NCBI GenBank assembly: GCA_024195265.1
Contig: JAJLRJ010000004.1
Location: forward strand, 6,684,095 to 6,748,094
Reading direction: 5' to 3'
Source of the DNA: Dendrophyllia cribrosa
Taxonomy: Eukaryota; Cnidaria; Anthozoa; Scleractinia; Dendrophylliidae
DNA length: 64,000 nt
Position numbers and translations under genes: made by a program. A model generated the notes under the pieces. It was not told the DNA's origin and searched no databases. It saw nothing but the letters and a program-made list of their open reading frames with translations. Shown here piece by piece: positions 13,401 to 56,750 of this stretch (position 1 is the first letter of the stretch; every line of letters begins with the position of its first letter).

Positions 13401-13454
13401 AGTCGGACCTGCCCAATATGTCGACATCCTCTGTACAGTCCACCCAGGGAGTAA
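1..13454 (+). CDS. Gene A (3' part): CHY/CTCHY zinc finger and RING-H2 E3 ligase-like protein
   Basis: Five exons join in frame (1-1424, 3679-3806, 5546-5666, 12894-12976, 13403-13454) and give about 601 residues ending in TAA. The reading frame is open at the window edge, so the 5' part lies outside. Domains in order: a Ser/Asn/Thr-rich low-complexity region, a Glu/Arg-rich coiled coil (about 1040-1220), a CHY zinc finger starting at CEHYQRHC (1263), a CTCHY zinc finger, and a RING with spacing CxxC...CxHxxHxxC...CxxC. This order is that of RCHY1/Pirh2 ubiquitin ligases, which transfer ubiquitin from an E2 to substrates. Unlike Pirh2, the protein ends just after the RING and has no C-terminal zinc ribbon. 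Gene B carries a close paralogue of every exon with the same intron phases. Ligase activity is inferred from the preserved zinc ligands. Confidence 0.85.
2287..2450. mobile_element. Short inverted-repeat element (MITE-like)
   Basis: The ends TGAGTAGTCCCT and AGGGACTACTCA are inverted, and the CCTCAGGGATAGTA block recurs inverted as TACTATCCCTGAGG. An inner hairpin has arms AAAATCACCCCAC and GTGGGGTGATTTT. No coding potential. Confidence 0.65.
2592..3382. mobile_element. TA-flanked inverted-repeat transposon, non-autonomous
   Basis: The ends begin CCGTAAACACC and finish GGTGTTTACGG, followed inside by AAGCCGCAC blocks, and TA flanks both sides (2590-2591, 3383-3384). A TA duplication is typical of Tc1/mariner-type elements, but no transposase is present, so the superfamily is inferred. 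Related copies in the opposite orientation lie at 42138-42981 and 42984-43211 in a gene B intron. Confidence 0.7.
3679..3806 (+). CDS. Gene A, exon 2 of visible part: CHY/CTCHY zinc ligands
   Basis: The acceptor TTGTTACAG precedes IGEDSEKCRKCGG, and the donor GTGAGT follows CGICR after two bases of the Arg codon. The exon is 128 bases, the same as its gene B partner (54040-54167). The Cys pairs CRKC, CSIC and CEKCGIC are zinc ligands of the CHY-to-CTCHY region. Confidence 0.85.
3807..5545 (+). other. Gene A intron between exons 2 and 3
   Basis: A 1.74-kb AT-rich intron. Near 5095-5180 there is a cluster of inverted copies of an AGTATTCTTTAT motif, likely a relic of a small hairpin repeat. 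No coding exon is recognised. Confidence 0.6.
5546..5666 (+). CDS. Gene A, exon 3: CTCHY finger and first RING cysteines
   Basis: The exon encodes IHKDKSFHCEVCNVC followed by a His/Cys pair and then ECCICLE, whose CxxC is the first zinc pair of the RING. It has 121 bases, as in gene B. The end of the preceding intron is also conserved between the paralogues (TAGTAGTGAAT then a pyrimidine run and AG), which shows duplication of genomic DNA rather than of an mRNA. Confidence 0.85.
6514..6550 (-). ncRNA. Hammerhead-ribozyme-like motif at the Penelope-like element end
   Basis: On the minus strand the order is GCT, CCGACGA, a hairpin GGGC/GCTC, GAAAC, GTC, AGC. This matches the hammerhead order: stem I, a CUGANGA-like core with one change, stem II, GAAA, cleavage triplet, stem I. 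Stem I pairs GCT with AGC. One extra A lies between core and stem II. Hammerheads are known in Penelope-like elements; activity of this copy is unproven. Confidence 0.4.
6630..7200 (-). pseudogene. GIY-YIG endonuclease domain of the Penelope-like element
   Basis: The minus strand encodes NFKLLQNDPETG, then a Cys-containing stretch, then IYCITC...IYIGETGRRLGDRFREH, which matches the GIY-YIG core including the conserved Arg. An in-frame TAA in place of a sense codon near 6690 truncates the tail. The domain would nick target DNA in an active element. Confidence 0.75.
7207..8112 (-). pseudogene. Reverse transcriptase fragment of the Penelope-like element
   Basis: A 301-codon open stretch on the minus strand contains palm motifs including YIDD, so the catalytic aspartates are visible. 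Upstream sequence to about 8350 continues the similarity in another frame (KPKIHKPN, GRPIVSACSCPTE). The apparent ATG is therefore internal, and this is not a complete gene. The 3' end runs out of frame before the endonuclease. Confidence 0.8.
9675..9897 (+). CDS. Short ORF of the dispersed repeat, unknown function
   Basis: From the ATG at 9676 the frame reads MPHSPRSTRGSLRHFSSDYD and ends after the three 11-residue repeats. The start region is conserved in the second copy of the repeat near 62350, which diverges after RHF. It could be the start of a transposon gag-like or ORF1 protein. No family is recognised. Confidence 0.3.
9790..9888 (+). repeat. Three tandem 33-bp units inside an ORF
   Basis: The block GTGAATTCTGGCCCAAAATG with its flanks repeats three times in frame, giving an 11-residue repeat of the form RGAVNSGPKCV. 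It lies at the 3' end of the ORF starting near 9619. Whether it is translated is unknown. Confidence 0.6.
9900..11070. other. Gene-free intronic stretch
   Basis: AT-rich sequence with short unsupported ORFs. A fragment with CACTCGCTACGCTCG, a phrase often seen in short inverted elements, lies near 9960. Nothing else is recognised. Confidence 0.5.
11074..11307 (-). repeat. ORF-bearing repeat fragment
   Basis: The minus strand is open for 77 codons (FSREFGVAGYKLKVGGTW, then RKIFKNEDTGDAFWCILG). It looks like a decayed repeat rather than a host exon, because it sits inside an intron of gene A on the other strand with no splice context. No domain is recognised. Confidence 0.35.
11852..11930 (+). 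repeat. 14-bp tandem repeat
   Basis: The unit AGTTATTCCCCTGT, with small changes, repeats about six times, bordered by CCCCTGTAATC-like sequence in inverse form. Confidence 0.75.
11969..12250 (-). CDS. Acidic 93-codon ORF, hypothetical
   Basis: The protein begins MSESDSDDDIFITQSSFS and is rich in Asp, Glu and Ser, with a predicted helical middle (LFEELKRSEYTNE). Composition looks protein-like rather than random. It lies antisense within a gene A intron, next to two tandem 207-bp units and a long palindrome, so it may be an exon of a mobile element. No homologous family is recognised and expression is unknown. Confidence 0.35.
   Translation of the reverse strand: MSESDSDDDIFITQSSFSGSIQSSCKDESLLDLPADNLDGLDVEETVTELFEELKRSEYTNEVGETSKKVEVSRRGIEIVTQGEVEERNSIKC
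12289..12707. repeat. Tandem duplication of about 207 bp, two copies
   Basis: The sequence starting ATGCAAATTACAACACGAGG occurs at 12289 and 12496 and continues through AAAACCTCACCA to GTGAAAAAT. The copies differ by small indels. On the minus strand each carries ATGTCGGCAAAA. Function unknown. Confidence 0.75.
12715..12831. repeat. Near-perfect 117-bp palindrome
   Basis: The arms TATCGGCCT...CCGAGGGC and GCCCTCGG...AGGCCGATA pair over about 57 bases around a three-base centre near 12773. It ends 63 bases before a RING exon of gene A. In the pre-mRNA it would form a strong hairpin close to the acceptor. Confidence 0.85.
12894..12976 (+). CDS. Gene A, exon 4: RING core
   Basis: The exon encodes DAFSGCQILPCSHKVHREC and continues to the donor GTAAGT. 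It supplies the CxHxxHxxC part of a RING-H2. It has 83 bases, as in gene B. The intron before it is 7.2 kb here but only 340 bases in gene B. Confidence 0.85.
13403..13454 (+). CDS. Gene A, last exon: final RING CxxC and stop
   Basis: After a T-rich tract and AG, the exon encodes RTCPICRHPLYSPPRE and TAA. CPIC is the last RING zinc pair. The ten residues after CPIC differ completely from gene B (DQPLRA), so the C-terminal tails have diverged. Confidence 0.85.
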
Positions 13455-34640: not shown

Positions 34641-34809
34641 ATTGGCTTTTGAAAAAGAAAAAAAACGGCCTTTAAAGAAATAAAAGGGGGTCTTAGTTTT
34701 AGGTCTTAGTTTTCGAAAAAAAAACGAAAACTAAGACCCTGGTAAGCAGTGTCAAAATGACTTTTGCCATAGACTTCGCATCTGGTTTTTGTTTATTGTC
34801 TTATAGTAA

Positions 34810-38984: not shown

Positions 38985-41834
38985 ATGGAAGAAAACTTCA
39001 AATCTGTTCTTGAGAATATTCATGCTTTATCTTTTTTGCATGGACATAAAAATGGTTTTGTAGAAAAGGCTTCAGAAGGAGCTAACAACATCCCAAACTT
39101 TCCTTATTATCTGGTTCCCAATGTTACCAAAGAGGATAAAAAGAGCTTTCAGTTACTACTATATAATGTTGAACAGACAATTTTGAAACCTTGGAGTGAT
39201 AGCCAATATGAATTCATGGTTTTTACTTGCCATGAAAATGATGATTTTGACATAGTGAACATACTTTCTGTCCTGAGTGCATTTGCTCATAAAAGAGGTA
39301 ATACAACATTTGTTGAAGAAGTACAAAGCATTGCTTTTCAGTATCAACAACATCCAGGTGCTGGGTTTCTGATGAATAACCTTGGGGTGATGTTAAGTGA
39401 AAATGTGCAATACGAGAAGAGTAAAGAGTGCTTGGATTTCGCAAAGAAGTGTTTTGAAAGCCAACAAGACCATCTAGGGGATGCAGTTGTTACATTTAAT
39501 CTAGCTGTTCTGCACAGGGTATTTGGAAATTATCAAAGGGCACGGGATTTGTGTGATGATGCAGCTTCCTTGTGCCATGACATCTCCATGAGAACAACAA
39601 AAGAGGCTTGTTTGCCAGCAAAGTTGCTGAGAAGAGTTGCCGATTTGTTGGAAGAGTTTGGAAACAAGATGTTCTATGATATTCTGAGGATTGGTGTACA
39701 CCATGATATCAGTGGTGCCCATAAAGCTGCTGTGGTTGATTTAACAAAGCAGTTGATGAAGTTCCAGCTTCAGGAAGAAATTGGTGAAAATATTCTAGTT
39801 GAAGAAGTGGAAGATCTTATCTTCCATTTATTTTCATTGCTGGATAAACCTGATGGTGAGCTGATGAATGCCGAGTTCATTAAAATAGTGATCATTTCAG
39901 CAAAGTTTTATTGCAATACTGGTCACCATGAAGAAGCCTGCAACTTGTTAAAGAAGCTAAAAAAGAAGTTCTTGCTGGTCCATGGTGGAAGAAGTTCTCT
40001 CTATGGCTCACTGCTCTACCAAATTGGTTGCTTCCTACATGGCTCTGGAAAGTTTGATGAAGCCAAAAGTGTGCTTGAAGAGGCTAAAGAAATCTTAATC
40101 TGTTATTTTGGCAGGAGCCATCATGCAGTTGCATCATGCAAGAGCTTTCTTGGCTCCTGTGTTATGCTAAAGGGTAATGCCAAAGAGGCCTTAAAGCACC
40201 TGAATGAAGCCCTGACCATGTTCAAGAAGCTGAACCCTAATCACCCAGAAGTTGGAGAGATTCTTCTAAAGCTTGCTTTTTTGTATGTTGAAGAGGGAAA
40301 GTTCCTGTATGCCCAAGAAATCATGCAAGAAGCAGTAGATATTTTCATATCAGCTTGTGGTGAAGTGTCTTGTAAGACAGCAGGTGCATATTTTCAAGTT
40401 GGAATGATCCTGCAGAAGATTGATAAGTTCCGTACTTCAGCTGTTGACAAAGTAGAGAAAGCCATTAAGATTTCATTGAATCTTGGATTAAATCTTGATC
40501 ATCCTGATGTCAAGCTTTGCATCAGTGTTCTTGGTGTCTTGCAGCTTTCCTTTGGTATGGCTGAAGAGGCAAAGAAGTGTTTTATTGATGTACAAAGCAA
40601 TGCATCCTTGTGTGAAGATCCATGCAGCATGAAAATCATTACCCCTGAAATCACCAACTTGCACCTTCGAGTAACATCTGATGATAGCAGAGGCAGATTT
40701 TCCTCTCTTCAAACTCAGGTGATTTCTCTTGTAAATCTGGTACACATGACAACTGGTGATGAAAGAGTCAAGTACCTGGATACACTTGCGAGTTGTTTGG
40801 AACAACTCCAAACAGTGGAGCTACAAATATGGGATTTTGCCGGCCAACATTTGTATTGTGTCTTACACAGAGTGCCTGTATCTGACAGACCTGTATTTAT
40901 AATTATTAATATGTTACAATCAGATAACAGCAGTGATTCTGACATTTTCTTGTCGTCTGCGAAGAAGTCACATTCCATTCTGTTTTCAAGAGTTCCACAC
41001 AAAGCCCAGGAAATGAAAGATGCTAAGTGCCTGGCGTCTGCCTTCTGCGAGAGTGTAAACACACTCTTTATGCAACCAAAGTTTAGAAAAGGTTTTCTAG
41101 AGGGGAAAGATTTATATATGGGATGGACAGTGCCAACAGGTCCTGGTGATGTATCCTCACTCTGTAGCCAGATTGACTGTCTTCCTCTCCTTGTTGAGCT
41201 GGAACTATCAGATTCTCAGGAACAATGTGACAACTTTGATTACTTGACATCTTGGGATCATTCTGTGAAATCCGTTGAGCCTTCAGCACACGTCTCTTAC
41301 TTTTCCTACAAGTGTTCCAGCCAGCGTGAGACTGAGATTGTTTTTGACCAGTTGATCCATAGTTTAGATCAAAACTTAGCACTGAACAAGGTCCAAGCTG
41401 TTGTTTCTAATGTTTCTCCATTACAGAATGCAGCCTCTTTCTTTTTCCAAGAGCCTTGGAATTCGTCTTTATCTGTTACCGTGGACAGTCAGTCAGTTCT
41501 TGTAAAATGCCGCACCATAAAGGAATCAGAGTTAAATTGCATTTGTTCCTCAGTGAGAAATGCACTGGATGTTGCAATGGAGTCATGTCAAACTGTTGGT
41601 GTGAACTTTGAGTCCTCTGCATGGTTGACTTGTGAAGGTGTTGGCTCTGGTTTTGGAATTGAAGAATCTTCAAGTAGAAACTGTAACTTGGGTGTTCAAA
41701 GTGATCCATCCTGTGCTGCTCTGACATCAGGAACTGGGGATTTAATCCCATGTGCAAGTGCACATAGTACAGACCCAGAATCGGAATTGAAGAGAAAACC
41801 AACTGCTGAGACAGTGGACATGCTTCAGGATGAG
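38985..41834 (+). CDS. Gene B exon 1: TPR array and Roc-like segment
   Basis: One 2850-base coding exon of 950 residues. Helix pairs such as FLMNNLGVMLSENVQYEKSK, LYQIGCFLHGSGKFDEAKSV and LLKLAFLYVEEGKFLYAQEI fit TPRs of the kinesin-light-chain type. After them, LQIWDFAGQHLYCVLHRV and VFIIIN resemble the G3 motif and next strand of Roc GTPase domains, but no GxxxxGK[ST] loop precedes and no clear NKxD follows. Donor GTAATT, phase 0. Its minus-strand ORFs are shadows. Confidence 0.8.
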
Positions 41835-44800
41835 GTAATTTTTTACTGTTGATCTCACCATTATTAAAAATAGAGGTTAAGGTGATTCCCTAGTATTGCA
41901 TTGTGCATCCTGACTGCACATAATATCTGAGAGCATGCAGATGCTGAATTTGCCCATTATTTCATTAACTTTAATGGTTTTCATGATGAGATTGTTCTCC
42001 TTTCATAACAATAATACTACATGCTAATAATAACTTTCTGGAAATAATGGTTGCTTCACTCAAGAATTGAATGTTCAATGTTTTCAATGTTAATTTTCAA
42101 TACTTAAATTTGTGAAATTATGGGATTTGATCAGATAACGTAAACACTGGCATATAAACCACACTTTTTTGCCCAAAATATTTGCTCAAAATCAGGGGTG
42201 CGACTTAGCTGCGGGAACATCAATCTGCAATAGGTTAACTTACTTGTACTTTCTGGTGATATATTAAAGTTGACAAGACTTTTTGAGCCTTGAAATTATG
42301 ATTGATCTATTTATTTGAATTATACAACCTGGAGCAAACATTCTTTAATGTTAGGTGATCTAGAAAAGTGAGTCTTGTTTCTCCAACAGAGCTGCCAGAG
42401 CACCTCCAAGACCAAAAATCAAATAAAAGAATAAGGTTCCACATCCACAGTGCTTGCTATCTTTGTCAGACATTTTGAAGCTTTTAGCAATGAAGGAACA
42501 CTGATCGAAGACGAATGAAAGAAGCCAAAGAAAAGAATCTGTAAACAAGCGGCCATCTTGGTTAACCTTAGTAACCAGGCTAAATAAAAGCATGTGCTCG
42601 AGAAATTTACACGGTTACCAAGCTTGTTTTGGCCTGAACGAACCTGAACGAACAATGTATGTAAACAAGCGGCCATCTTGGTTAACCTTAGTTACCAGCT
42701 AAATAAAAACATGTGCTCAAGAAATTTGCATGGTTACCAACTTGTTTTGGCCTGAACGAGCGGGCAAACAAACGTAGCTGCGCTGAAAACTGCTGAAACT
42801 GCGTGGGTTTTTTTTCAATACACATGATTCGATGGATAGAAGCAAAGTCTAGCTCATGTTTTGTGGAACCAATTCTCTGACTTACATTTTTATTTTAAAA
42901 ACCTTTTTTTTCCAAAATGTGAGCTTCAAAACTCGAGGTGCGGCTTATCTACGAGTGCGGCTTATACACCGGTGTTTTTGGTACTTTTTGTTACCAAGTT
43001 CATTGTGGCCTTAACGAACGGCGGGCAAACGAACGTAGATGTGATCACAAGTGTGGTTTTTTTTATACACTAGGATGATTCAATGGATAGAAGTAAGGTT
43101 TAGCTCAAGTTTCGTAGAGCCAATTCTCTAATGTACTTTTTTATGTTTTTGAGTTTCATAACTCGGTGCGGCTTATCTGCGAGTGCGGCTTATATGCCCG
43201 TGTTTATGGTATTCAGAAAGTGCACAACAAAAAAAGCCCGCTTGCCAAAAATCTGCATCTTAATGATCTTATTGCAATTTAAGGGTGAGATATTGGCTTC
43301 TTTATTCTCTGATGGCTCCATATAAACCCCTCTCATTTTGCCTCAGTTCCTAATGTTTGGAACAAATTCCATAATTTCACAAATTTAGTTTTTGACACAT
43401 CAGCACTTTGGGATTCTATTAAAAGCAACTTTTTTAGGAATTATTTATAGCTAAGAAAAACAGCAAAGAGTTAGTTCATTACCAGAAATGGCAAAACATT
43501 TTACCTTTGCAGTAAATTAAAATAATCTCTATTCATCTACATAGTAGGCTGTTTTTATGGTATTGTATTGTATTGTAGGTTATTTATTTTTTGTATTTAT
43601 CTTCATGTTAGTACGCATGTTAGTATTAGAATAGTAGTGTTATATGTACTATATATTTGTGCAAATTATTTTGATAAGTAATAAAAATCTGTTAAAAGAA
43701 AAAAAAAACTTTTATGTTTAATTTCCATTAACAGAATATTGAAGTGGACCCTCCTGTTGGCAATCCCCGCAACAATTTTCATGCAGATGTGGATGTTTGC
43801 CTGTGTCTTTTGAGTTGCCTTTTGAATCAAGCCAGACCTGTATCCCCTGAGGAAGAAGCATTGTCATTGAACAGCAGTGCGGTGCCTTCAACAGACTTTG
43901 CCAGGCATGATAGCAACAGCCAAGAAAATCACAGCTACTCTTTCTTATCAGTTGGCTCTTCATCTTCACTGAACTTATTACCTCTGAGCCCTCCTATAGT
44001 TTCCCAGAAAAAGTGCTTTGAATTACAACAACAGATAAGCCAGCTGGGAGAGCAGTTGAGACAGAGTGAGGAGGAGAAACAAAATCTTCAATTTGTTCTG
44101 GGGAAATATCTGTTCCTTGAGGGAAAAGAAAAGCGCCGTGAAAGGCTTCTTGGTGAGGCAGCTCCTGTGCAAGATCCAGGTAAGCTAGAGATGTAAAACA
44201 GCATAATAAAACAGGATGCTTACCATTAATTTTTACACAGAAAAATCTGGTTGTTAAATCAGAAAAGTATTGTTAGAAAATCGTAAGACTAATGTTTCGA
44301 AGAATTGTATAGATTTTGGGTCCATTGAACCATTCTGAACTTTTTTGGGAACTCAGGGTGAGGAAAGGGTGTGCAATTTTTTTAAAAGGGTGGGTAATTT
44401 GACACCATGGGAACCAATCAGTTGAAATTGCACTGCACCTGTCAATGTTTTGAGTGTGGGAGCAAGGTGACTCTTGCGTTCATTTGACCAAATTAGCACA
44501 TGGCTGTGATACCCTATACACTGAACTGTATGTATTATGTTACCAGGGAGACATGTTCACTTTCAAAAACCAATGCTAGTTTAAATGGAGTCCGAGTCAG
44601 TTGCAAACTTGTTGCTGACGTCACAATCCACAATAAACTACAAGACACAAAAGGAAGAGACAATAAATATTAACAACATGTTTCAACAAGTTTCTCATGA
44701 ATTTGTTAAATTTTCTCTCCTTCCTTTACTGAGATGGTACGTGTACAGGCATTCATTTTGCAGGGCTAATTGCATTTTTCTCATGATTTATAATATTATT

Positions 44801-47800
44801 TTTATTAGGCTTCTTACTACATGAAAGACTCCTAGAGATCTCCAACTCTTTATCAGCAGAAGAGGTGAAACGGATCAAGTTTCTGGCCAAAAGCAGAATC
44901 AATGGTTTTCGGCTTGCACGGTTAACAGAGGCCTTTGAACTGTTTGAAGAATTAGAATCGAGTGGTGAATTTCCATGTGACTATATTGAGAAGCTGCTTG
45001 CAGGAATTCGGCGTTACGACCTTGTGGAGAAACTTGGAATACATGTTCCTTTGCCTGGGGCAGAAGGAGGTTTGTTAATTTTTCTATTTCAAACATCAAT
45101 CAGTATTGCTACAGTAAACACGCATAAAAGAAACAGCAGATTAACCCTTTACTCCCTAAGAGTGCCAATTGGCACATAATGCCATAACTTGCTCAATATT
45201 TGGTAGATTGCTATGAATTTTTGCCGCCAAAATTACTTGTAAAGATCTACCCAGCAAAGGCATAAAAGACCCCCTCCTATACATGGCATGGTTGGCCACC
45301 CCTACAACTTTTCAACATTTCCTTTCCTTACACATTTGTAGTCCAAGACTTATCTCATAACTTCCTTCACAGATGCTGAAAGATATGTTTTATGAGATTA
45401 ATACACTGATCAATAGCTTTAAAATGGTGTATCATACATGGGCATAGGGTTACTCCTTATCAATTTGGAAAAAAGTGGCATTTGCCTTAGGGAGTAAAGG
45501 GTTTTAAGAACCTGCAGGCTGAAATTTGGCCAATAAAGCACCTAATGTATAAGAACCAATTCAGCCTGACAAATAAAGCAGGTTCTTATAAGAAAATATT
45601 ACTAAAGATAAGACAACACTTGGGCAGATCCAAGTATGTGTGCTGGACCATTACAAACATACAATGTCTAGTTTCAGAAAATATCCATACCTCCCTCACA
45701 GAAGGGATTGGATTTTCTAGAGTAAATTTGCCAAATTTTCCAGGGTTGGGGGGGAGGGGGGTAATTTGCCTATAATGCCTAATTTACTATTAAATTTTGG
45801 GGCTCAATTTTGGGAAATCCAGAAGGGAGGGGGTCATATGGCAGATCCCACTGTGGGGGTGGGAGAAGGATGGGGAATGGATTTTCAGTAGATGCTGTAC
45901 AACATTTCCAGAAACAATTTTAAGAACCTCTTTAGTCTTAAGAACCTCTCCAGGCTGATTTCTCACTAGTTATTATTACACATCCTGTACCGGTATATAA
46001 GAAACGCATCAGCCTGAAACAGAAAATCACAGGTTCTTTTATGCGGGTGTTTACTGTATTTCATTTTCAACCCTTTCACTCCCATAGTCAATTACAGAGA
46101 CTTAATTGAAGTGTACATGTAGTTCTACAATCCAGTATGCCGACAAAATCCTGCGGTGTGACCATTCAAATGAAACCTCCTCAGCAGTATTTTTGCATGG
46201 TACCTTTTGTTTTTTCAACATTTTACAAAATGAAATTTAGAATGTTTCTACAGTTGAATCTGTCATGAATAGTAACCATGAACCCTTGGACATAATTTTC
46301 TGGCCATCCCATTGTGGAATGGAGCAAATATTCACCACTGCTTGATTAAAATACCATTAAATTCCTGAGGAATCTTGCTGAAATGTGATGCATGCCTTTT
46401 GCACTGTGTCATTTCATATTTTTGCCAGTAATAAAAACAAATTCCTATAAAAAGACTGTGACAAAGTGTCAAAGGTTTGGAATTATCCTTGATTCCTCAG
46501 GGAATTAAGGTGTCTGCACACAGTTTTCAATGACCTGTACCTTACAACATGTATGTTTTTTCCCTGGATGCCCCAAATTGGCAAGGATAAAATTAAAAGT
46601 TGGTTTATTTTTATTTCGGTAGTTTAGTTGATATATGTGACATTGCCATAGCGGCGAGGCTAGATATAAACCTGCCTTAAAAATTAGGTTCCGCTCATTT
46701 GCAAAAAAAACAATCAGTCAATAGTTTTTCTCTCCCTGTTGCCTGCTACTGATAAATACAAACTTATTCACAATGGTCTAATGCAATTTCAAGAGAGATA
46801 AATATAATTATAAATCCTTGTTTAAATATTGATTGCTTTCACATTATGCTATTAATCATTAGAGATTTCCTCTGTTGAATTTCAATTTCTTATTAGCCCA
46901 CTTTATTTTCTAAAACATTTTCCTGCCAAATTTTACAAAATTCTATCATCTGGCTCCTTATAAATTGAGGGTTAACCTATTCCCCTGAATCCGGAATCCG
47001 GAATCCGGAAACTTGAGCATGAAATCCTAAAAGCCGGAATGAACTAAAACATGAAAAATAAATAAATATCCGTTTAATACCCGTTTAATTTTTCGTACTT
47101 GACATCGCGTGGCCTAGTCTTCAGTCACGCAGTTTTCTGATTCCTTACTTTAAGTTTTCACACCAAAATTTTGACTATAGCGTGACCTTATTGTTTAATG
47201 CAACTGTGGTCTAAACTGAGTATAGTGCGACACATCGCGCTTCGTTGTCAAGCACAATCACAGGCTTAGCCTGCAATCTATAAACAGGATATATGATTGA
47301 GAGTGAAATTGTGGCGGCACAAGCGATTTTAATTTTTCCAATACAGTATTGCAACTATATGCACACAGCATTGCGAGTAATTTTGCTTGTGGTTTTAGAA
47401 TTAAGAACTAATTGAGTCATCAGGTGGGGAAAGGGTATTTTGCGAGCAGACCCAACAATACATTTTTGTTTACAATAATCAGAAAACATTATTTGCTTTT
47501 TTGTTATAAAAAAAGAAACATCAATAACGGGAGACAAATTAAATTTATACTGCAGCTAAAAACATTATAAACACTGCTGTTTCAAAAACTTCTTGTGAAA
47601 ACCGTTTGTTCTGATTGGCTTAAATTCAATGTCAAATTGAGGTTGCACGTGCACATGTAGTGCTATTTAAAACATGATTTTCTCCATGCGCTGATGCGAC
47701 ATTGTCAAAAAATCGCCTTGGCAAAATTTCTAAAAATGTGTAAAAATGGCCAAATGCATATTAGAGACGGAAAACCGTCTTGGATGGGAAACTTGTCTAC

Positions 47801-50800
47801 AGACGGAAAACTTGTCTGATATGAATCCGGTGAAGGACGAGTTTCCCATCTCAAATTATCCGTCTATTTTTACGTCTAAACCGACGGAAAACTGTCTTAA
47901 ATTCACATTAGACGCGAAAATCACGACGACTTTTTTGTGCTATGCGCTTGCATACATTAGGAAAAGACTGGAACTAGAAAGACAGCAACTGTTTCTGGTT
48001 AAAAAAAATGGCTCCCAAGAAGAAGGTCACTGAGAAGCAGTCTCATGAAGATGATTTACCGTCCTTAAATTCGTATCCAACAGTATTCTGTCTGATGGAA
48101 TTCCGTCTGTGACGAGTTTCCCGTCTTCTAATATGAATTCGGCCAATGTATGAATACAAAAGTGTATATTAAAATACGGTATGGAAAATTTAAAATCGCG
48201 ACTACTTCGTTTCAACGGGTCGCTTGTGCCGCCACGATTTCACTCTCATCTATGCTGTTTATAGATTGCAGACTAAGCCTGTGAATGTGCTCGACAACGA
48301 AGCGCGATGTGTCACACTATAGTCAGTTTAGACCACGGCGTGCGTTATACAATCAGGTCACGCTGAAGTCAAAATTTTGGCGTAAAAAGATAAAGTAAGA
48401 AATCGGAAAACTGCGCGACTGAAGACTAAAACTACACCATGCGATGTCAAAGTACGAAAAATTAAACGGGTATTAAACGGATATTCATTTAGTTTTCATG
48501 TTTTGGTTCATTCCGGCTTTTAGGATTTCACGCTCAAGATTCTGGATTCTGGATTCCGGATTCCGCATTCCAGAGAATAGGTTTACCCTTAATTGATGTA
48601 TTGTTGTGAAAAGCCAAGTGAGTTTAATTGAACAAAGGTGCCAGTAAATATATTTCCAACATACACTGTACTGTGAGAGTTTGTGCTATTCTGTTCATTA
48701 CCATAATCTGAGATAAGGGAAAACAAAACTCAAACTGGTTTGAAATTTTTCAAACCAAAGGAAAATTTGAACAAAACACATACAAATGAGTATCAATCTA
48801 TCTCTTGGAAGCATATGGCGCATTTTCAGGGTCAAAATTAGATATGTGTAACTTCTGCCTTTTGACTTTTTAAATAAAATCTTTTTATGCATTACTACTT
48901 TTAAAAACACGTCGTTCTTTGTAAAGTAACTTAATGAAACAAGTTTACAGGCTCATGCCGACTTTTAAACCCGCTACTTTGTGCATTACTACTTTTAAAA
49001 ACACACTGCTCTTTGTAAGATTACTTATGAAACAAGTCTGTAGGCTCGTGCGGACTTTTAAACCCGCTTCTTCTCTCGTTTCATAATTGTAAAGCCGTAT
49101 GATGTCACGCAACACTCCATGATTTGCGAACACTCCATGATGACTTGCGAACACTCCATGATGACTTGCGAACACTCAATGACTTGCGAACGCTCAATGA
49201 CTTGCGAAACACTTTTTGCCAGGCGTTCCTTGTCCTACTTGATCACGTGATCAAGGATCCACAGGGATCTAGGACCGACTTTTTGTGTAAAAGCATGGCG
49301 TCAATTTAGTGGTATAAAAAAGGACAGGCCAACACAACTCCCACCTGTCGCAAAAAAGTATTTTAAAAGCCTAAAGTATAAAGCTTTCCCAGTAAGACTT
49401 AAGAGAGGATTGTGCCTTTAGATCACAGTAAAGAATTTGTTCTCTTCGGTGATATAAACCTTTTGATCTTGGCGGATTATCTCTCAGATTAATAGGAGGA
49501 TACATGCTGTCCAGAGCGGTTAGAATTATTTATTTCTTTATGCCGTTATTCGGTGCTAGCTCTATTGGCATACATTGCGGTTTCTTTGGCTCACTTTTGT
49601 TGCAAGATAAATACTTATCGGCTAAAGTTTGTTATCGCTTTGAAAGTACCAGGATCGTTAAATTTCTCAGGCCGTGATTTAATGTCTAAAGTCTGCGGCG
49701 TGCAAAACTTGAGAGAAAGTGTTTCCGGCATCACGGATATAGGCGTCTTAGATCTGACTCTCAAAAAGCCGTCGTCTATAATTCCACTGCAGTGAAATCA
49801 CGAATTCTTGCAATATTTTTAAGTTCCTAAGTTAGTTCTGTAGTCGAGTTAAGTGTGTCTCAGTGGAGCTAGGATAAACCTCCGTTGCTTTGTAATAGCA
49901 TTTGATTTGGCATCCAACAGATAATCCACAGCATAGTTGCTGTGTAAATCTCACGGATGCTAGTAGATTCTTGAGTCCTTTCAAGGAATGAACACAATTT
50001 AATGTTTTAATGTTTGACTCGAGTTTCGGTTCTTTGGCGAACCTTGTCTAAAGGTCTCGTACAATGATATGAAACCATTCAATGTCTGTCGCTTTTGTAT
50101 TCCTGGGGAGGATCGAATATTTTGTTTTCTCAATGGCTCTTTTAATTGGGCCAATAGGCAGGATTGTTGTATTTTCGATCCGACGTTGTATTGTGTTTCT
50201 TCAGAAGGCTTTTTTGTGATTTCTTGTGCATGTACGGTACTTTTTTGACACAAAGGATAGCTCTTGTAGAGTTGTACAGAGGTGGTCTCGTAAATGCCTC
50301 AATAAATAAGACATTATTAATGTATCTTGCACAACAAGAGTGTGATCCTTGTGTAGTGGTGTTGTGCCACATACGTTCAGATGTAATCTCGTGCGTCGCA
50401 GCGGGACGGAGCACTGTCAAAAAGTCATAGATTGTGGTATAAAGGTAGTTGTCAGATTTGGCGTACTCGTACTCGGCCCGCGTTTCAGTTGATGTTGTCT
50501 TAGTAGACGCGGCAGCATTAGTCGATGAAGAATTTGTAATTCGCTCAGCAGTTTCAATGAGTCGCTGAGCGCACTCTCTGAGAACGTTTCAATCCATTAA
50601 AAACTGAAGATGTGCTACCGTAATCGAGATCGAGAGACTGTCAGCTTTTTCGAAACGTGGGTTTATCGATCACGTGATCAAGTAGGACAAGGAACGCCTG
50701 GCGAAAAGTGTTTCGCAAGTCATTGAGCGTTCGCAAGTCATTGAGTGTTCGCAAGTCATCATGGAGTGTTCGCAAATCATGGAGTGTTGCGTGACATCAT

Positions 50801-53800
50801 ACGGCTTTACAAATGTGAAACGCGAGAAGTAGCGTGTTTAAAAGTCGGCACGAGCCTACAAACTTATTTCATAAGTAATCTTACAAAGAGTAGTGTACTA
50901 GTGTGTTTTTAAAAGTAGTAATGCATAAAGTAGCGGGTTTAAAAGTTGGCACGAGCCTGTAAACTTGTTTCATAAGTTATTTACAAAGAACGACATGTTT
51001 TCAAAAGTAGTATAACATAAAAAGATGTTATTTAGAAAGTCAAAAGGCAGAATTAGTTACACATATCTAATTTTGACCCTGAAAATGCGCCATAGAAGCA
51101 CTCAGTTTTTTGTAATAATTACATGTATTGTATATTTTTGACTTGTGCCCATGTTCGTTTTTCTTTAAGGATCAAATCATCCTCCTGGGCAGAGTATGCC
51201 AGACAGAAAACACGAATTACCATACCATGCCACAAATTCACCTAAATCCATGACTGCACAAGACAACAGTATGAAGGTGCATCCAGACAGACATGACATA
51301 GAGAGGCATTTGAGTAATGGTGGAAACACAAATGATCATGTGTCAAGGACGGAGGAAACAGATTATGATTGCAGCCAATATGCATCAATTTCATCTGGTG
51401 GAAGCTCAGATGAGACTTGCCACTACACCGAGAATGAACTGACTTGCGGTGACATGATTGTGTTAAACATAAATGCAGAAGTCGATAGTTCATCCTTGCA
51501 AAGTACTGGTAATGCCAAAGAATGCACTCGATTACCCAACCCTTCTGATGATGATTTCTTGTCCGATTCCAGTTGCAGCACAATTACAAGTTCATCTGAT
51601 TCATTGGTAAACTCTACACAGACAACACAAGCAGCTGCTTCAAACTGCACCTCACCAGCTTCAAGTGATTCAACTGATGTCTCACCAGTCTTAACATCAG
51701 TCAATTCTCATTCGGCGTTTCAAAGTAATGAGATCTCAAGTGACAGTGGCCTTACTCCAAATACCAGCAGAGAAGAGAATCTTAGAAGTTCTCAGATGTT
51801 GGCCAATGGAGGTGAGGAGTCTGAAGATAGAGATGTGTATGATGGAGCAAAAAGATTAGCACCATCATGCATAAGTGCATGTGCTGTGAGTACAAGAACA
51901 GATTCTTCAGTCAGTTCTCCTTTGGCTTTGTCGGAACTCAAAGTGGTGCAAATGTAGGAAACGTTCCCTGGTCACACCAAGGTGCCTTTCCAAGTGCAGA
52001 AATGGCAGCAGGTGGAACACATGCAACAGGTACATTCAATGATACTGCAACAGACTGGGAGCGTCAAGGTGCTAGACCAAAACTGAGCCGAGCACAACAT
52101 TCAGCTATCAAACAAATGCCAGGAGAAACTTTCGTTCCTGTCACCGATGGTTTAGCTGGAGATTTCTTGACAAGGCACACACAAGATAGGACCATTCATG
52201 ACAGTCTGTATCAGAGTGTTGGAACAGAAATGCCATTGTTTAATGACACTCCATCGCAGAGGGCTTCCTATATTGATGGTGTGGTAAATGTATCTGACTC
52301 TAACAAAGCCAAGCCATACTTTGGCGATTGCCAGGCTGTATTTGAGACTGATCCATATAGTAGATTTGATGAAAGAGGCATTTCTTATAGTGAACACTTA
52401 AATAACAACACTGGACTTTCGCCCAGCCATTTAGGAGACAATTCTTTTTCAGTTTATGGCAACTATTCACAAAGGAACACTGTAAATGTAACAAATGGTC
52501 TTCCACTCCATAGTGGTTTTGTACATAATAACAGTAGATTTTCAGAACATTTTGGTGGAGTGCCTGGTTTACCATTAGAAACACAGCAGAGACCCTTCCT
52601 TTCTGTACCAAGTAATCAGTTTGTCAATTCAGGAGTGACTCGTTCAAGTTTTGCTGACCTCGCTTGTAACAGCACTACTTTAAGAACTCAATCTGGGCAC
52701 CCTGTGTATGGTGCACAAAGATATACCTCATTTAATGATAATACTTCATCATCTGCACAGAGTACAAAACAAACACCTCAGAATACAAATTTAGCCCTGG
52801 GAAACTATTCAAGCAATACTACAAACAATGATAATGTACCAAGTACTTCTGCGGGAAATATTCTACATGGACATGTGCAGAATTCTGCTTTGCCAGCTGC
52901 CCGTGCAGTTTCCAGTCGTGATCCTCCTCGTGCAACAGGGCTGAACTCAACCACAACTGTTGGTGACGAGGTATTGGCACAGGGATCTGCAAGTGGGACA
53001 TCTATCCCTGAACCTAGTTGTGGTAATGCAGACAACCGCAGAGCTTCTGTGTTAAACAACAGAGACTTTGTTACTGAGTCAGTTGAGTCCACAGACAACT
53101 CCTCACTTGCTCTGGAACAACATGTTGCAGAGGCTTGCGCCCTTGTTGAACGAGTACTCAGGGAGAGGGAAGAGCGTGAACAGTTTGGAAGGGAAATGGA
53201 AAGAAAAGAACAGTTGATAAGAGAACAGAGAGCCAGAGAAAGGAGAGAGAGAGAAGAAAGAGAAATTCAGGAAGCGGAAATGTGGCCACATCAACAAGAA
53301 TCAATCACTGCACACTCACAGTGGCCTTGTGAACATTATCAATGGCATTGCAGAATGCGGTTCCCTTGTTGCAGAGAATTCTATCCATGCCATCACTGCC
53401 ACAACATCTCAAATGTTTGTGACAATGACGAGGCTAAAGCATGCCATGCATCCCATCTCAAGTGCTCTCACTGCCAGCATGAGCAAGAGGTAACCTTTCT
53501 TCTAAACTGATTATGTTGAACATGAGTAGTGAAGTTCCCTAGCTTAGCAAAAACTGATGGTTCAAAAGTTGAATGTCTTGCAACATTGGATGTTTGCTGC
53601 ATAAATGGTTGTTTCTAATAATTATTTTATAAAAGTGATGGAAATTCTTATCAAAAAATTTGAAGAGTAACACAATTTCATTGCCTTATAAAGTGGGTTT
53701 CATCAAAACAAATGTTTAGAACTTGTACTGAAATTTTGAATAACAGCCGCCTTCCGCTGCGTCTTATTTAGCGATGAGAGGCAGTTCATATATTCACGGG

Positions 53801-54318
53801 CTTAAAGTTACATTTGTATTATGGTGTTTAATGTGGCTTTAACTTTCCAGTCTCTGAATGATTAATCCCAAAGCTCCACTCTTGAGATATTTATATAACT
53901 TATATAAATATCTCAAGAGTGAAGCTTATTAAGCTATCAAGCAGTACTTTCCTGATTTTCAATTTTTTTTCAAATGCCATTATGGAATTTGGCACTATCT
54001 TGCATTGTTAAAACATTGTTTTGACTTCTATTGTTACAGATTGGTGAAGACAGTGAAAAATGTCGTGCATGTGGAAGCAGAATGTCAGTATATTTCTGCT
54101 TCATTTGTCGAATCGTCATTAGTGCAGACAACAATGCACATCACTGTGAAAAATGTGGAATATGCCGGTGAGTAAACCAACAACATAATTTTGTAAAATT
54201 GAAATTTATCGTAAATGTAACTGTTCCCTGCAAAGTCACCGTGTTAAAACAGTACAGATCATTTAAATTAAGGAAATGGTAAACCAGGCAAATATGGAGA
54301 GGCCCTTAGCCCGGAGAA

Positions 54319-54350
<32 letters not shown>

Positions 54351-55947
54351 TCCCATATAAAAGTGACAGGTGTGCTTGTTGGACATTTTTGAAAAACACC
54401 CTAAAAAAAGTACCATAATCATTAACATGCAAGTCTGATCAAACAGCTGAATTTGTTCGGTTTCTTTTAATTGCCTAATATTTCGGTTAGACAAAAGTTA
54501 CCTTCATCAAGGGCTATTAGAAAGCTAAGTGAAGATGGAAACAAATGGTTACAATATTTAAAAAGGGCTAAGATAAAATGCTTACACATGATAGGCTAAT
54601 AAACAAGTAACGGTTGAAAACTAGGTAGAAACGGCTGGTAATAATAATTACAATAAATACGTGGAAGATTAAATTCGTTGCGTCTGTTCTGGGTTTTTTT
54701 TTTTCGTCTTATTTGCCATTAAGTATCAGAATCATGTTTGATGGGCATGGCTCAAATGAATTTTTACCCCTATGGGTTACCAATGCTAAAACAACACATG
54801 TCATATTCAGTCATATTTTTTCAGCTCAATACCCTAAAAGATACTGTGATAAGTCTAACAGTGGTTATTTGAGATTTTAGCACTCTAAGCAGTATCAATC
54901 TACCAATTTTGACCCCTGAAAGGTACGACGAGCACCCCTGTCATTTTTATATGAAGTAATCTATGTTTCCTTTTGTCACTAAAATTCCGATTTTATTTCT
55001 TATTTACATTGCTGTTAGGATTAGTAGTGAATTTGAATTTTGTGATTTCCTCATCCCAGAATCCACAAAGACAAGTCATTCCACTGTGAGGTGTGTAATG
55101 TGTGTTTGGACAAACGGCTCAAGGGAAATCACAACTGTCGACCAGATTCAGGTTACGGTGAATGCTGTTTCTGCTTGAAGGTGAGTTTTTGGATTTCTTT
55201 TTAATGAGGGATGTGCCCATTGGGATTGGTACTGCCCCCCACCAATCCAAAAACCAGAAAAAAAGGAAAATAATAAATAATAAATAAATTATGTGCAGTT
55301 AGAGGTCCCAGGACAGAGGAAAAAATTCTACTGCTGTCCCTTCCCTTGATGGAGAGTTGAGGGAGATAGCTTATTGCAAATCTGTTTTTCAGAGGGCTAT
55401 AAAGCTTTAACAGTACATTGCCTTGTTGTCACCAAATTAGTTATCTGTCCAATGAGTTGCCTGACGGTTGCTGCAATTGTAATATTTTACATTTATTATT
55501 TTCCTGTTCATTCTTTGTAGGATGCATTTAGTGGATGCCAAATATTACCATGCTCTCACAAGGTGCATAGAGAATGTGCCATCGCGATGATCCAATATGG
55601 CATGTAAGTAACTGCCTTTTCTAAGATAGTATTAAGTTCTCTGCTTATTGTCTAAGCTTTGTTAGTGAAGAGTAATCCATCTTTCTCTTATTTTTTGTGT
55701 AACCCTAGGCCTGGGTAATCCACCTGGTGTATTTGTACAGTGTTCACCCCATTTACACACTTATTTTTTTGGATATTTTATTAGACATGATTAAAACAAA
55801 TTCTTCAAATTCACGAAAATTTGTTGTTGCAAAATATAACCCTTCAAAAATTGTGAAAATGTCCGGTAATGGGTAGATACTGACCTGTGTGTTCTTTATG
55901 TTTGCAGTCGCACCTGCCCAATTTGTGACCAGCCACTACGTGCATAA
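38985..55947 (+). CDS. Gene B: TPR / Roc-like / DED / CHY-RING multidomain protein
   Basis: Exons: 38985-41834, 43735-44179, 44809-45069, 51170-about 51889, about 51958-53489, 54040-54167, 55060-55180, 55521-55603, 55908-55947. They join in frame to about 2059 residues if the short gap near 51.9 kb is an intron. Order: tetratricopeptide-like repeats (about 125-200, 305-535), a Roc-like segment with WDFAGQ (616-621), a coiled coil (about 1045-1090), a death effector domain (about 1100-1185), a Ser/Asn-rich linker, a second coiled coil, CHY and CTCHY zinc fingers, and RING-H2 at the C-terminus. The parts suggest a scaffold that binds partners by TPR and DED and ubiquitinates through the RING, likely in cytoplasmic apoptosis or immune signalling. 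That role is inference. Gene A is its upstream tandem paralogue. Confidence 0.8.
42138..42981. mobile_element. TA-flanked inverted-repeat transposon, second copy
   Basis: The ends ACGTAAACACTGG and CCGGTGTTTTTGG have TA outside. The interior matches 2592-3382 in the opposite orientation (GATTCGATGGATAGAAGCAA, CAAGCGGCCATCTTGGTTAA). The CAAGCGGCCATC part is duplicated within this copy. Confidence 0.7.
42984..43211. mobile_element. Partial third copy of the TA-flanked element
   Basis: The right half only (AATGGATAGAAGTAAGG, GTGCGGCTTATCTGCGAGTG, GTGTTTATGG) directly abuts the preceding copy. Confidence 0.6.
43735..44179 (+). CDS. Gene B exon 2: linker and coiled coil
   Basis: The acceptor CATTAACAG precedes NIEVDPPVGNPRNN; the donor is GTAAGC in phase 1. 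A Ser-rich region (SFLSVGSSSSLNLLPLS) is followed by heptads (LQQQISQLGEQLRQSEEEKQ), a probable dimerising coiled coil just before the DED. Confidence 0.8.
44180..44808 (+). other. Gene B intron 2
   Basis: A 629-base intron with no repeat or coding signal recognised. Confidence 0.7.
44809..45069 (+). CDS. Gene B exon 3: death effector domain
   Basis: The 87 residues have the six-helix DED pattern: HERLLEISNSLSAEEVKRIK, then FLAK, LTEAFELFEELESSGEF, then YIEKLLAGIRRYDLVEKL. RYDL is the RxDL motif of DEDs in FADD and caspase-8, and the helix 1-2 pattern agrees. DEDs self-associate and recruit other DED proteins. The acceptor TTTATTAG and donor GTTTGT are both phase 1, so the domain is one symmetric exon, as expected for exon shuffling. 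Confidence 0.8.
45112..46056. mobile_element. TA-flanked inverted-repeat element, 945 bp
   Basis: CAGTAAACACGCATAAAAGA and its inverse (TCTTTTATGCGGGTGTTTAC TG) with TA on both sides. Non-coding; several internal AAGAACCT blocks are inverted copies. Tc1/mariner-type target, family inferred. Confidence 0.7.
46968..48589. mobile_element. Long inverted-repeat element, 1.6 kb
   Basis: The arms are about 390 bases each. They start AGGGTTAACCTATTC with CCGGAATCC repeats, pass through ATACCCGTTTAATTTTTCG and end near GGCGGCACAAGCG. The flanks AAATTG and TAATTG form a near-perfect 6-bp duplication. The middle holds direct and inverse copies of GACGGAAAAC. No transposase. Confidence 0.75.
48814..51094. 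mobile_element. Long inverted-repeat element with tandem subunits in its arms, 2.3 kb
   Basis: The ends TATGGCGCATTTTCAGGGTC and its inverse are flanked by GAAGCA at 48808-48813 and 51095-51100. The arms of about 430 bases contain two tandem units of TTTTAAAAACAC...TTTAAACCCGC and four or five units of CACTCCATGATGACTTGCGA, in mirror order. Inner borders share TGATCACGTGATCA. No transposase. Confidence 0.75.
51170..51889 (+). CDS. Gene B exon 4: Ser/Thr-rich disordered linker
   Basis: The acceptor TTTCTTTAAG and phase 1 entry give GSNHPPGQSMPDRKH. The exon is rich in Ser, Thr, Asp and Asn with no fold expected. Its frame stays open to 51957, but the next part lies in another frame. Donor candidates are GTGAGT at 51886 and GTACAA at 51890. 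Confidence 0.7.
51958..53489 (+). CDS. Gene B exon 5: linker, coiled coil and start of CHY finger
   Basis: In the frame matching gene A the protein runs NVPWSHQGAFPSAEMAAGGT, through the Asn/Ser-rich region, a Glu/Arg coiled coil (53155-53280) and CEHYQWHC (53328), and ends HEQE before GTAACC. If the 68-base segment 51890-51957 is an intron (GT...AG), the join is in frame. The exact left border is uncertain. Confidence 0.75.
53490..54039 (+). other. Gene B intron 5
   Basis: A 550-base intron. An inverted repeat of CTCTTGAGATATTTATATAA and TTATATAAATATCTCAAGAG lies near 53880-53925. Otherwise unremarkable. Confidence 0.65.
54040..54167 (+). CDS. Gene B exon 6: CHY/CTCHY zinc ligands
   Basis: IGEDSEKCRACGSRMSVYFC, then CFIC and HHCEKCGICR, with donor GTGAGT. 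Zinc ligands match gene A, while the loop after CFIC differs (IVISADNNA against KHFTSIDKNP). Confidence 0.85.
54168..55059 (+). other. Gene B intron 6
   Basis: An 892-base intron with a G tract of about 30 bases at 54319-54349. A repeat resembling a Penelope-type end (GATGAAGG...CGAAA on the minus strand) lies near 54470-54520. Confidence 0.6.
55060..55180 (+). CDS. Gene B exon 7: CTCHY finger and first RING cysteines
   Basis: IHKDKSFHCEVCNVC to ECCFCLK before GTGAGT. The first RING CxxC is intact; Ile to Phe and Glu to Lys changes separate it from gene A at positions that often contact the E2. Confidence 0.85.
55521..55603 (+). CDS. Gene B exon 8: RING core
   Basis: DAFSGCQILPCSHKVHREC is identical to gene A; one later residue differs (IQYG against IQNG). 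Donor GTAAGT. Confidence 0.85.
55908..55947 (+). CDS. Gene B exon 9: last RING CxxC and stop
   Basis: RTCPICDQPLRA and TAA follow the acceptor TGTTTGCAG. The tail is four residues shorter than in gene A and unlike it. Confidence 0.85.
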
Positions 55948-56750
55948 CTTTTAGTGATAGTGGCAAAAGTATCTGCCGAGCGCTGGACTGTCCAACTCAT
56001 GCAAATGAGCAAAATCTGTTGTTCTTGTTCATTAACTGGCTCGTCGCTCTGCGACGAGTCAGTTCTTAAAATACCCCCTTTTTTTTTTTTTTTTTTTTTT
56101 TTTCCTGTCGGGTCACCTGCCCCGGGAATCGATTTTGCTGCGGCCAACACCGTACCTAGTTTACTTCCGGTTTTCAGAAATCAGTGATGTCATCTAAAAG
56201 ACAATTTAAATGGATCTCTTAAGGAGTTATGATAGTGAGGAATGTTCTTTTCGATAATTCAGAATCAGTGGGTGAACTACATGGTGCGAAGGAGGTTTGG
56301 AGTGTTTATCTACTAACCTATAGCTGGGCGAATGTGGATATGTTTCCTTCGCGCGAATATTTTGCATTAGCAGTTGTTAGGTCATTCACCAATGGCAAAG
56401 CGAAAATTCTACACTGGTGTTGTTGCCGTGAAAAGCACAGAAAATACGGAGAGCATTAGCACATAGGCCTGAAGGAAGATCGCAATCAACAGCGGTGGCT
56501 ATCCTCAAAGGAATTTTTGGACCCCACGCGCGAAGCAAAGGGAAATTCCCGCATGTGGCAAATGCTTTTCTGAGCTTATAATACATCCTCCAGCTACCAC
56601 AGTTGAACTAGTTGAATATGAGGATATTATGTCAGTTTTCAGTCGGTTCACAAGGCGAACTGTATACCATAGGAAAAGAAATTTGTAAACAACCTCGTTC
56701 GGCTACGGTTCACACGGTTCACATAATTAAAAAAATATGTATGATATTAA
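55948..56750. other. 3' flank of gene B
   Basis: A run of about 24 T at 56080-56103 and AT-rich sequence. No AATAAA is seen in the first 700 bases, so the poly(A) site is unclear. Confidence 0.45.

What the first reader, a model, noticed from the sequence alone, without database searches (positions are those of the whole stretch)
38985..55947. Single protein joining TPR, Roc-like, death effector and CHY/RING ligase modules
The exons join in frame to about 2059 residues with TPRs, a DED holding the RxDL motif, two coiled coils and a Pirh2-type CHY/CTCHY/RING-H2 C-terminus. I know of no described family with a DED fused to a CHY-RING ligase. A DED would let the ligase join FADD/caspase-8-type assemblies and ubiquitinate them. 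Domain calls come from motifs seen; the signalling role is inference.
Basis: partly seen in the sequence, partly recalled or inferred. Interest (0 to 1): 0.82.

Follow-up and report, generated by a model that had tools for sequence, protein, structure and literature searches.

The report
Coral death-domain ubiquitin ligase gene family
Stony corals appear to carry a multi-copy gene family that fuses a protein-binding repeat scaffold and a cell-death assembly domain to a ubiquitin-ligase end, a combination I did not find described, although this particular copy has a reading-frame break in the assembly.

The parts
38985..41834 (+). Exon 1: residues 1-950, TPR superhelix (about 49-538) and a mid region (about 600-880) with a G3-like DFAGQ motif at residue 617
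   Evidence: Pfam PF13424 5.1e-26, PF08477 Roc 4.1e-4 below cut-off; model m72dacbefd4df; donor GAG|GTAATT; motif position
43735..44179 (+). Exon 2: linker with a putative coiled coil (from about residue 1041)
   Evidence: open frame, GT-AG junctions in frame; aligned in relatives
44809..45069 (+). Exon 3: death effector domain, with RxDL motif (RYDL at residue 1167-1170, numbering)
   Evidence: PF01335 1.1e-12; fold model and matches to FADD; RxDL in 20 of 20 aligned DEDs
51170..53489 (+). Exon 4: low-complexity linker, second putative coiled coil, first part of the CHY zinc finger; interrupted by a frame change
   Evidence: ORFs 51169-51957 and 51843-53510; related proteins run through
51907..51957 (+). 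Net one-base loss within 51907-51923 and the resulting stop TAG at 51955-51957
   Evidence: tblastn of P0073 and P0074
54040..54167 (+). Exon 5: rest of CHY / start of CTCHY
   Evidence: in frame, GT-AG; Pirh2 alignment
55060..55180 (+). Exon 6: CTCHY and first RING cysteines
55521..55603 (+). Exon 7: RING-H2 core
55908..55947 (+). Exon 8: last RING cysteines and stop TAA
3..1424 (+). Tandem copy, its exon 4 (cut by the window start): linker and CHY, 77.5% identical in protein to the right-hand copy
   Evidence: tblastn and blastn self-comparison; no stops
3679..3806 (+). Tandem copy, exon 5
5546..5666 (+). Tandem copy, exon 6
12894..12976 (+). Tandem copy, exon 7 (RING)
13404..13454 (+). Tandem copy, last exon (RTCPICRHPL...stop), start approximate
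   Evidence: motif search

Best explanation
A tandemly duplicated gene family, seen so far in stony corals, that encodes a very large E3 ubiquitin ligase. A TPR superhelix plus a degenerate region without GTPase motifs forms the N-terminal binding platform. A single DED lets the protein self-assemble or join DED assemblies of the coral FADD/caspase-8 type. A long low-complexity linker and a putative coiled coil tether a Pirh2-type CHY-CTCHY-RING-H2 module, which is thereby concentrated on the assembly and ubiquitinates its members or whatever the TPRs have captured. Shown: domain identities, the fusion in gene models of several genera, the tandem copy, some purifying selection on the ligase end. 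Inferred: DED recruitment, ligase activity, partners, immune or cell-death role. The window's own copy has a frame break that is either an assembly error or a loss-of-function allele.
For: Domains. DED fold. Same fusion in relatives: P0002, P0018 and P0019 scanned with TPR, DED, CHY, RING in that order; P0002 aligns to residues 1034-2082 in one piece across DED, linker, CHY and RING; DED-CHY-RING without TPR in P0037, P0045, P0048, P0063 and, with a ZZ finger in front, P0025. Zinc ligands: 32 of 37 Cys/His of Pirh2 (7ynx) matched; all eight RING-H2 ligands are in register in the alignment. Constraint, right against left copy: 560 codons dN 0.087, dS 0.222 by NG86 and 0.097, 0.172 by YN00; CHY-RING 165 codons 0.093, 0.451 by NG86 and 0.128, 0.190 by YN00. 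Coral context: coral FADD and caspase-8 are reported to interact (PMC4715348, passages); a coral caspase has tandem DEDs (PMC7586219, passages).
Against: No expression data. Frame break in this copy. Five of 19 relatives with a DED lack CHY (P0020, P0021, P0022, P0023, P0145); P0001 and P0007 have TPR and CHY but no DED; P0004 shows no RING match and a second DED after its CHY. NCBI models may be fused or split by the predictor. DED Pfam scores of P0002, P0003, P0019, P0025, P0045, P0048 and P0145 fall below the curated cut-off. With YN00 the constraint on the CHY-RING part is weak. Nothing shows a DED partner.
Confidence: 0.6

Rival explanations
1. Two neighbouring genes (TPR-DED and CHY-RING) merged by gene prediction and by the first reader.
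For: 6.1-kb intron before exon 4; models without CHY (P0020, P0021, P0022, P0023, P0145) and models without TPR (P0037, P0045, P0048) or without TPR and DED match (P0066) exist, in Stylophora and Oculina on contigs of the same length, so probably the same contig.
Against: TPR-less models keep the DED with the CHY-RING (P0025, P0037, P0045, P0048, P0063), and TPR+DED+CHY+RING chains are predicted in Montipora, Stylophora and Acropora. The exon 3/exon 4 junction is in frame. P0020, though without CHY, runs through the linker to just before it.
Confidence: 0.15
2. The window's copy is a pseudogene or null allele that makes only a TPR-DED fragment.
For: Net one-base loss and TAG at 51955.
Against: The other exons are open and the seven introns have GT-AG ends; the ligase end still shows dN below dS against the left copy; a single-base loss is also a common assembly error (general knowledge).
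Confidence: 0.4
3. The DED serves only to oligomerise the ligase (activating the RING by proximity) and has nothing to do with FADD or caspase-8.
For: DEDs can form filaments by themselves (FADD-DED filament entries); the DED is well conserved within the family (mean column identity 59% over 14 sequences), and a search with the Oculina DED found only itself and one other family member among 136 candidates.
Against: Nearest folds are FADD and caspase-8/cFLIP DEDs, which shows fold, not partner.
Confidence: 0.4

Closest known systems
Pirh2/RCHY1 (CHY-CTCHY-RING E3 ligase)
   Same: Same zinc module and order; phmmer 1.3e-24 over residues 3-174 of the C-terminal part
   Different: Pirh2 (7ynx chain, 203 residues) is small and has no TPR, DED or long linker (recalled)
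FADD / caspase-8 / PEA-15 death effector domains
   Different: No caspase or death domain was matched by Pfam in the exons; the DED lies in the middle of a 2,000-residue ligase
BFAR (BAR) and CARP1/2, RING ligases of the DED-caspase pathway (recalled; BFAR seen only as an E3 in passages of PMC11367865)
   Same: RING ligases linked to DED caspases; BFAR has a DED-like segment (recalled)
   Different: No CHY-CTCHY module, no TPR scaffold (recalled)
Coral TPR-GT4-conflict proteins (glycos_transf_1 proteins with TPR)
   Same: About the first 940 residues are 50-52% identical to 11 such proteins (P0006, P0008-P0017); P0003 holds GT4, TPR, DED and CHY in one model
   Different: Effector is a GT4 glycosyltransferase instead of DED-CHY-RING
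Marine invertebrate TRADD-N/DED expansions (Kaur et al. 2021, PMC8195603) and coral NACHT/NB-ARC proteins with DED and TPR (PMC4083563)
   Same: DED joined to variable effectors, ubiquitin-ligase domains among them, in lineage-specific expansions (passages and section 15); coral NACHT proteins with DED at one end and TPR among the repeats (passages)
   Different: No NACHT and no TRADD-N was matched here; CHY is not named in the main text of PMC8195603 (0 occurrences)

Membership tests
Death effector domain (PF01335) | Profile match above the curated cut-off | tested here: met
   48.4 bits against 35.9; several relatives score below it
Death effector domain (PF01335) | Six-helix death fold | tested here: met
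Death effector domain (PF01335) | RxDL motif (recalled as a DED hallmark) | tested here: met
   20 of 20 aligned DEDs, window included (alignment read by eye)
Death effector domain (PF01335) | Homotypic binding to another DED | not testable with these tools
   needs a binding assay
Pirh2-type CHY-RING E3 ligase | CHY, CTCHY and RING-H2 in order with zinc ligands | tested here: met
   alignment; 32 of 37 Cys/His matched; among the five unmatched, the His of Pirh2 'DICHLF' is Arg here; which Cys/His bind zinc was not looked up
Pirh2-type CHY-RING E3 ligase | Ubiquitin ligase activity | not testable with these tools
   biochemical assay needed
Pirh2-type CHY-RING E3 ligase | Module in one continuous reading frame with the upstream exons in this copy | tested here: not met
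   frame break 51907-51923; met in the gene models P0002, P0018, P0019
Roc / AP-GTPase (PF08477) | Profile match above cut-off | tested here: not met
   21.0 bits against 27, profile positions 51-95 of 119 only
Roc / AP-GTPase (PF08477) | P-loop GxxxxGK[ST] | tested here: not met
   0 of 26 family proteins, window included; one of the 26, P0024, has no TPR in its precomputed Pfam list and probably lacks the module
Roc / AP-GTPase (PF08477) | Ras-like fold | tested here: inconclusive
   mid region modelled with block means of pLDDT about 31-75; fold lists filled by the TPR part
Coral TPR-GT4-conflict family | GT4 domain PF20706 in the protein | tested here: not met
   no match in the window exons; the N-terminal module is homologous

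The most novel reading that the evidence does not exclude
Corals run an interchangeable intracellular receptor system: one TPR/pseudo-GTPase recognition module is plugged either into a GT4-conflict glycosyltransferase or into a DED-CHY-RING ligase, so that ligand capture leads to glycosylation or, through DED polymerisation, to ubiquitination of caspase-8/FADD assemblies or of the captured invader. This would be a class of signalosome E3 ligase that I have not found described.
Probability: 0.3. Interest if true: 0.82.

Novelty: new variant of a known kind. Interest (0 to 1): 0.6.

Why it matters
In the systems I know of (recalled), control of DED assemblies by ubiquitin is mostly done by separate ligases brought in by adaptors. 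A family in which the DED and a Pirh2-type ligase are one polypeptide would give corals a built-in, duplicated brake or switch on the FADD/caspase-8 branch of cell death, which matters for disease and bleaching responses. Its N-terminal module is shared with GT4-conflict proteins, and glycosyltransferase and TPR genes are among the most enriched in the duplicated regions of Acropora genomes (PMC8195603 section 15; PMC12314368 section 15 part 1). So it offers a concrete handle on what those expansions recognise.

Tried and rejected
Small intron as the cause of the frame change in exon 4: between 51600 and 52400, 516 GT/GC-AG pairs of at least 40 bases restore the frame. By my simple score none stands out among the 30 shown, and two related proteins read through the place as coding sequence; rejected. 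The left-hand copy in the window does not reach the frame break, so it gave no control there. PADLOC gave only weak generic TPR matches for exon 1 (2e-4 and 0.0048) and none for P0006. phmmer of the DED against PDB ranked designed PPR repeats first through many short repeat matches, none passing singly; the real match is FADD at 4.8e-6. Roc as a working GTPase: rejected for lack of a P-loop. Fold lists for the exon 1 model show KLC1, LGN and APPBP2 TPRs, a common arrangement; no functional reading was made of it. No Roc chain is among the 50 rows shown in either list, which proves nothing. Literature, in a library of open-licence PMC papers only: 'death effector domain' + 'CHY zinc finger' + 'coral' gave 0 papers; DED + tetratricopeptide + cnidaria + ubiquitin ligase + RING gave 0; 'GT4-conflict' gave 0; Pirh2 + DED gave 3 papers, listing only; 31 papers held two of RCHY1, DED and cnidarian, 15 listed, none of the 15 with RCHY1; one search gave 6 by three of four terms. 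Searches gave 9, 8 and 1 papers. Of all these I opened PMC8195603 (passages, section 15), PMC12314368 (passages, section 15 part 1 of 2), PMC4083563, PMC5013795, PMC4715348, PMC7586219 and PMC11367865 (passages).

Full report
What was checked. The region 38985-55947 was translated in all frames, read as DNA in two stretches (41380-48100 and 51100-56300) and scanned with Pfam piece by piece. Exon 1 gives TPR_12 at 5.1e-26; the piece with exon 3 gives DED at 1.1e-12; the end of exon 4 gives the start of a CHY zinc finger (9e-7, slightly below the cut-off, as the exon ends inside the domain). The joined C-terminal part aligns with Pirh2/RCHY1 (7ynx) at 1.3e-24. These are far beyond chance. The organism is not told; named relatives are stony corals (below), so I take the window to be one.

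Gene model. Exons 38985-41834, 43735-44179, 44809-45069, 51170-53489, 54040-54167, 55060-55180, 55521-55603 and 55908-55947 have GT donors and AG acceptors at all seven introns, and the translations join without a stop on either side of one place. That place is in exon 4, which starts in one frame and ends in another. The first frame meets TAG at 51955-51957; the second, which carries the CHY finger, is open from 51843. Two database proteins, P0073 (831 residues) and P0074 (785 residues), run through this place as one open frame. They are listed without a source, with a longest contig of 1,454,520 bases; they are not letter-for-letter in the window (63-83% identity of aligned blocks), so I take them as paralogues or close relatives. 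They align to the window up to 51906 and again from 51924; between these blocks each has 6 residues and the window 17 bases. So the window copy has lost one base net. Whether the loss is an assembly error or a real null allele cannot be told here.

One gene or two. The full-length query gave 27 proteins among the 7988 candidates scored, a capped set. Seven have both DED and CHY by precomputed Pfam (P0002, P0003, P0004, P0005, P0018, P0024, P0025), and P0019 makes an eighth by my own scan (DED 3.4e-4, below the cut-off, but 1.1e-33 with the family's own profile). Six of these eight also have TPR (P0002, P0003, P0004, P0005, P0018, P0019). In P0002 (Montipora capricornis), P0018 (Stylophora pistillata) and P0019 (Acropora muricata) the order TPR, DED, CHY, RING was seen directly. 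P0003 has in addition a GT4-conflict domain at its N-terminus and only a sub-threshold RING match; P0004 has no RING match and a second DED after its CHY, as if two copies were run together. Against the fusion: P0001 and P0007 have TPR and CHY but no DED; P0020, P0021, P0022 and P0023 have TPR and DED but no CHY. P0006 and P0008 to P0017 (11 proteins) have TPR and GT4 and neither DED nor CHY. P0026 and P0027 are distant TPR-only matches.

A second search, from P0025, scored a capped 7981 candidates and listed 120 of 184 proteins. By precomputed Pfam 6 of the 120 have both DED and CHY (P0025, P0037, P0045, P0048, P0063, P0111); P0036 has a partial DED by the family profile. Many of the others are unnamed ENA records that look like predictions of the CHY exon alone and cannot inform on the joint; I did not check them one by one. 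In P0037 (Oculina patagonica), P0045 and P0048 (Stylophora) and P0063 the DED precedes CHY and RING in one chain. A third search with the Oculina DED added P0145 (Oculina, TPR and DED, no CHY). In all, 19 relatives have the DED and 14 of them also CHY. The DED-to-CHY-RING joint is thus seen in gene models of Montipora, Stylophora, Acropora and Oculina. The organisms named in the listings (Montipora, Stylophora, Acropora, Oculina, Porites, Desmophyllum) are stony corals; the 64 unlisted hits were not seen, so a wider spread is not excluded.

The mid region. A DFAGQ-like motif stands at residue 617 and is kept in 24 of 26 family proteins, the window's included; none of the 26 has a P-loop. One of the two without the motif, P0024, has no TPR in its precomputed Pfam list. 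Pfam Roc scores 21.0 bits against a cut-off of 27 and matches profile positions 51-95 only. At most this is a relic of a Roc/AP-GTPase. The structure model is uncertain there.

The second copy. The window's first 13.5 kb hold the last five exons of a second copy on the same strand: 3-1424, 3679-3806, 5546-5666, 12894-12976 and about 13404-13454. Over 560 shared codons dN is 0.087 and dS 0.222 by NG86 (YN00: 0.097 and 0.172); for the 165 codons of the CHY-RING part 0.093 and 0.451 (YN00: 0.128 and 0.190); for the 395 linker codons 0.084 and 0.158 (YN00: 0.093 and 0.125). So there is some purifying selection, its strength dependent on the method. The left copy starts outside the window and does not cover the frame break.

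Coral context. About the first 940 residues are 50-52% identical to those of 11 unnamed TPR-GT4-conflict proteins, closer than to the NCBI-named relatives (35-45%), while the unnamed P0001 is 67% identical over residues 1-607 (Pfam of P0006). GT4 domains of this type are reported as a lineage-specific expansion of over 500 paralogues in Acropora digitifera and as predicted effectors of conflict systems (PMC8195603, section 15 read). TPR and glycosyltransferase group 1 genes are among the most enriched in non-syntenic regions of Acropora genomes (PMC12314368, section 15 part 1 read). DED partners exist in corals: an Acropora caspase-8 reported to interact with coral FADD (PMC4715348, passages) and an Orbicella caspase with tandem DEDs (PMC7586219, passages).

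Mechanism. Shown: the parts, their order in relatives' gene models, the tandem copy. Inferred: that the TPR module captures a ligand; that the DED polymerises or joins FADD/caspase-8 assemblies; that the RING is active; that the outcome is ubiquitination of assembly members or of the captured ligand. The most likely reading is a ligase that is concentrated on DED assemblies. Whether it dampens or drives cell death cannot be said.

Known or new. Each part is a known domain. DED proteins with other effectors, ubiquitin-ligase domains among them, are described in marine invertebrates (PMC8195603, passages), coral NACHT proteins with DED and TPR are described (PMC4083563, passages), and RING ligases acting on DED caspases are known (BFAR, CARP; recalled). 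I found no description of a DED fused to a CHY-RING ligase in the library searched. I file it as a new variant of a known kind.

Noticed in passing
window 7210-8226 (-): 339-residue open frame with a reverse transcriptase domain (RVT_1 6.2e-9), inside an intron of the left-hand copy.
   Followed up: partly
window 33218-34705 (-): 496-residue open frame with a weak zf-RVT match (1.7e-4, below cut-off), probably a retroelement remnant between the two gene copies.
   Followed up: partly
window 42132-42988 and 2585-3387: Repeated DNA in opposite orientation shared between intron 1 of the right copy and the intron after exon 4 of the left copy (77-93% identical), perhaps a mobile element.
   Followed up: no
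P0003 (Montipora capricornis): One model holds GT4-conflict, TPR, DED, CHY and a sub-threshold RING match; either a true five-part fusion or neighbouring genes run together.
   Followed up: no
P0025 (Montipora foliosa): ZZ zinc finger at the N-terminus of a DED-CHY-RING protein without a TPR match, another front end for the same ligase.
   Followed up: no
Stylophora proteins P0018, P0022, P0045, P0048, P0066: Five family members with different domain subsets, all listed with a longest contig of 594823 bases and near-by LOC numbers, which points to a tandem array there too.
   Followed up: no
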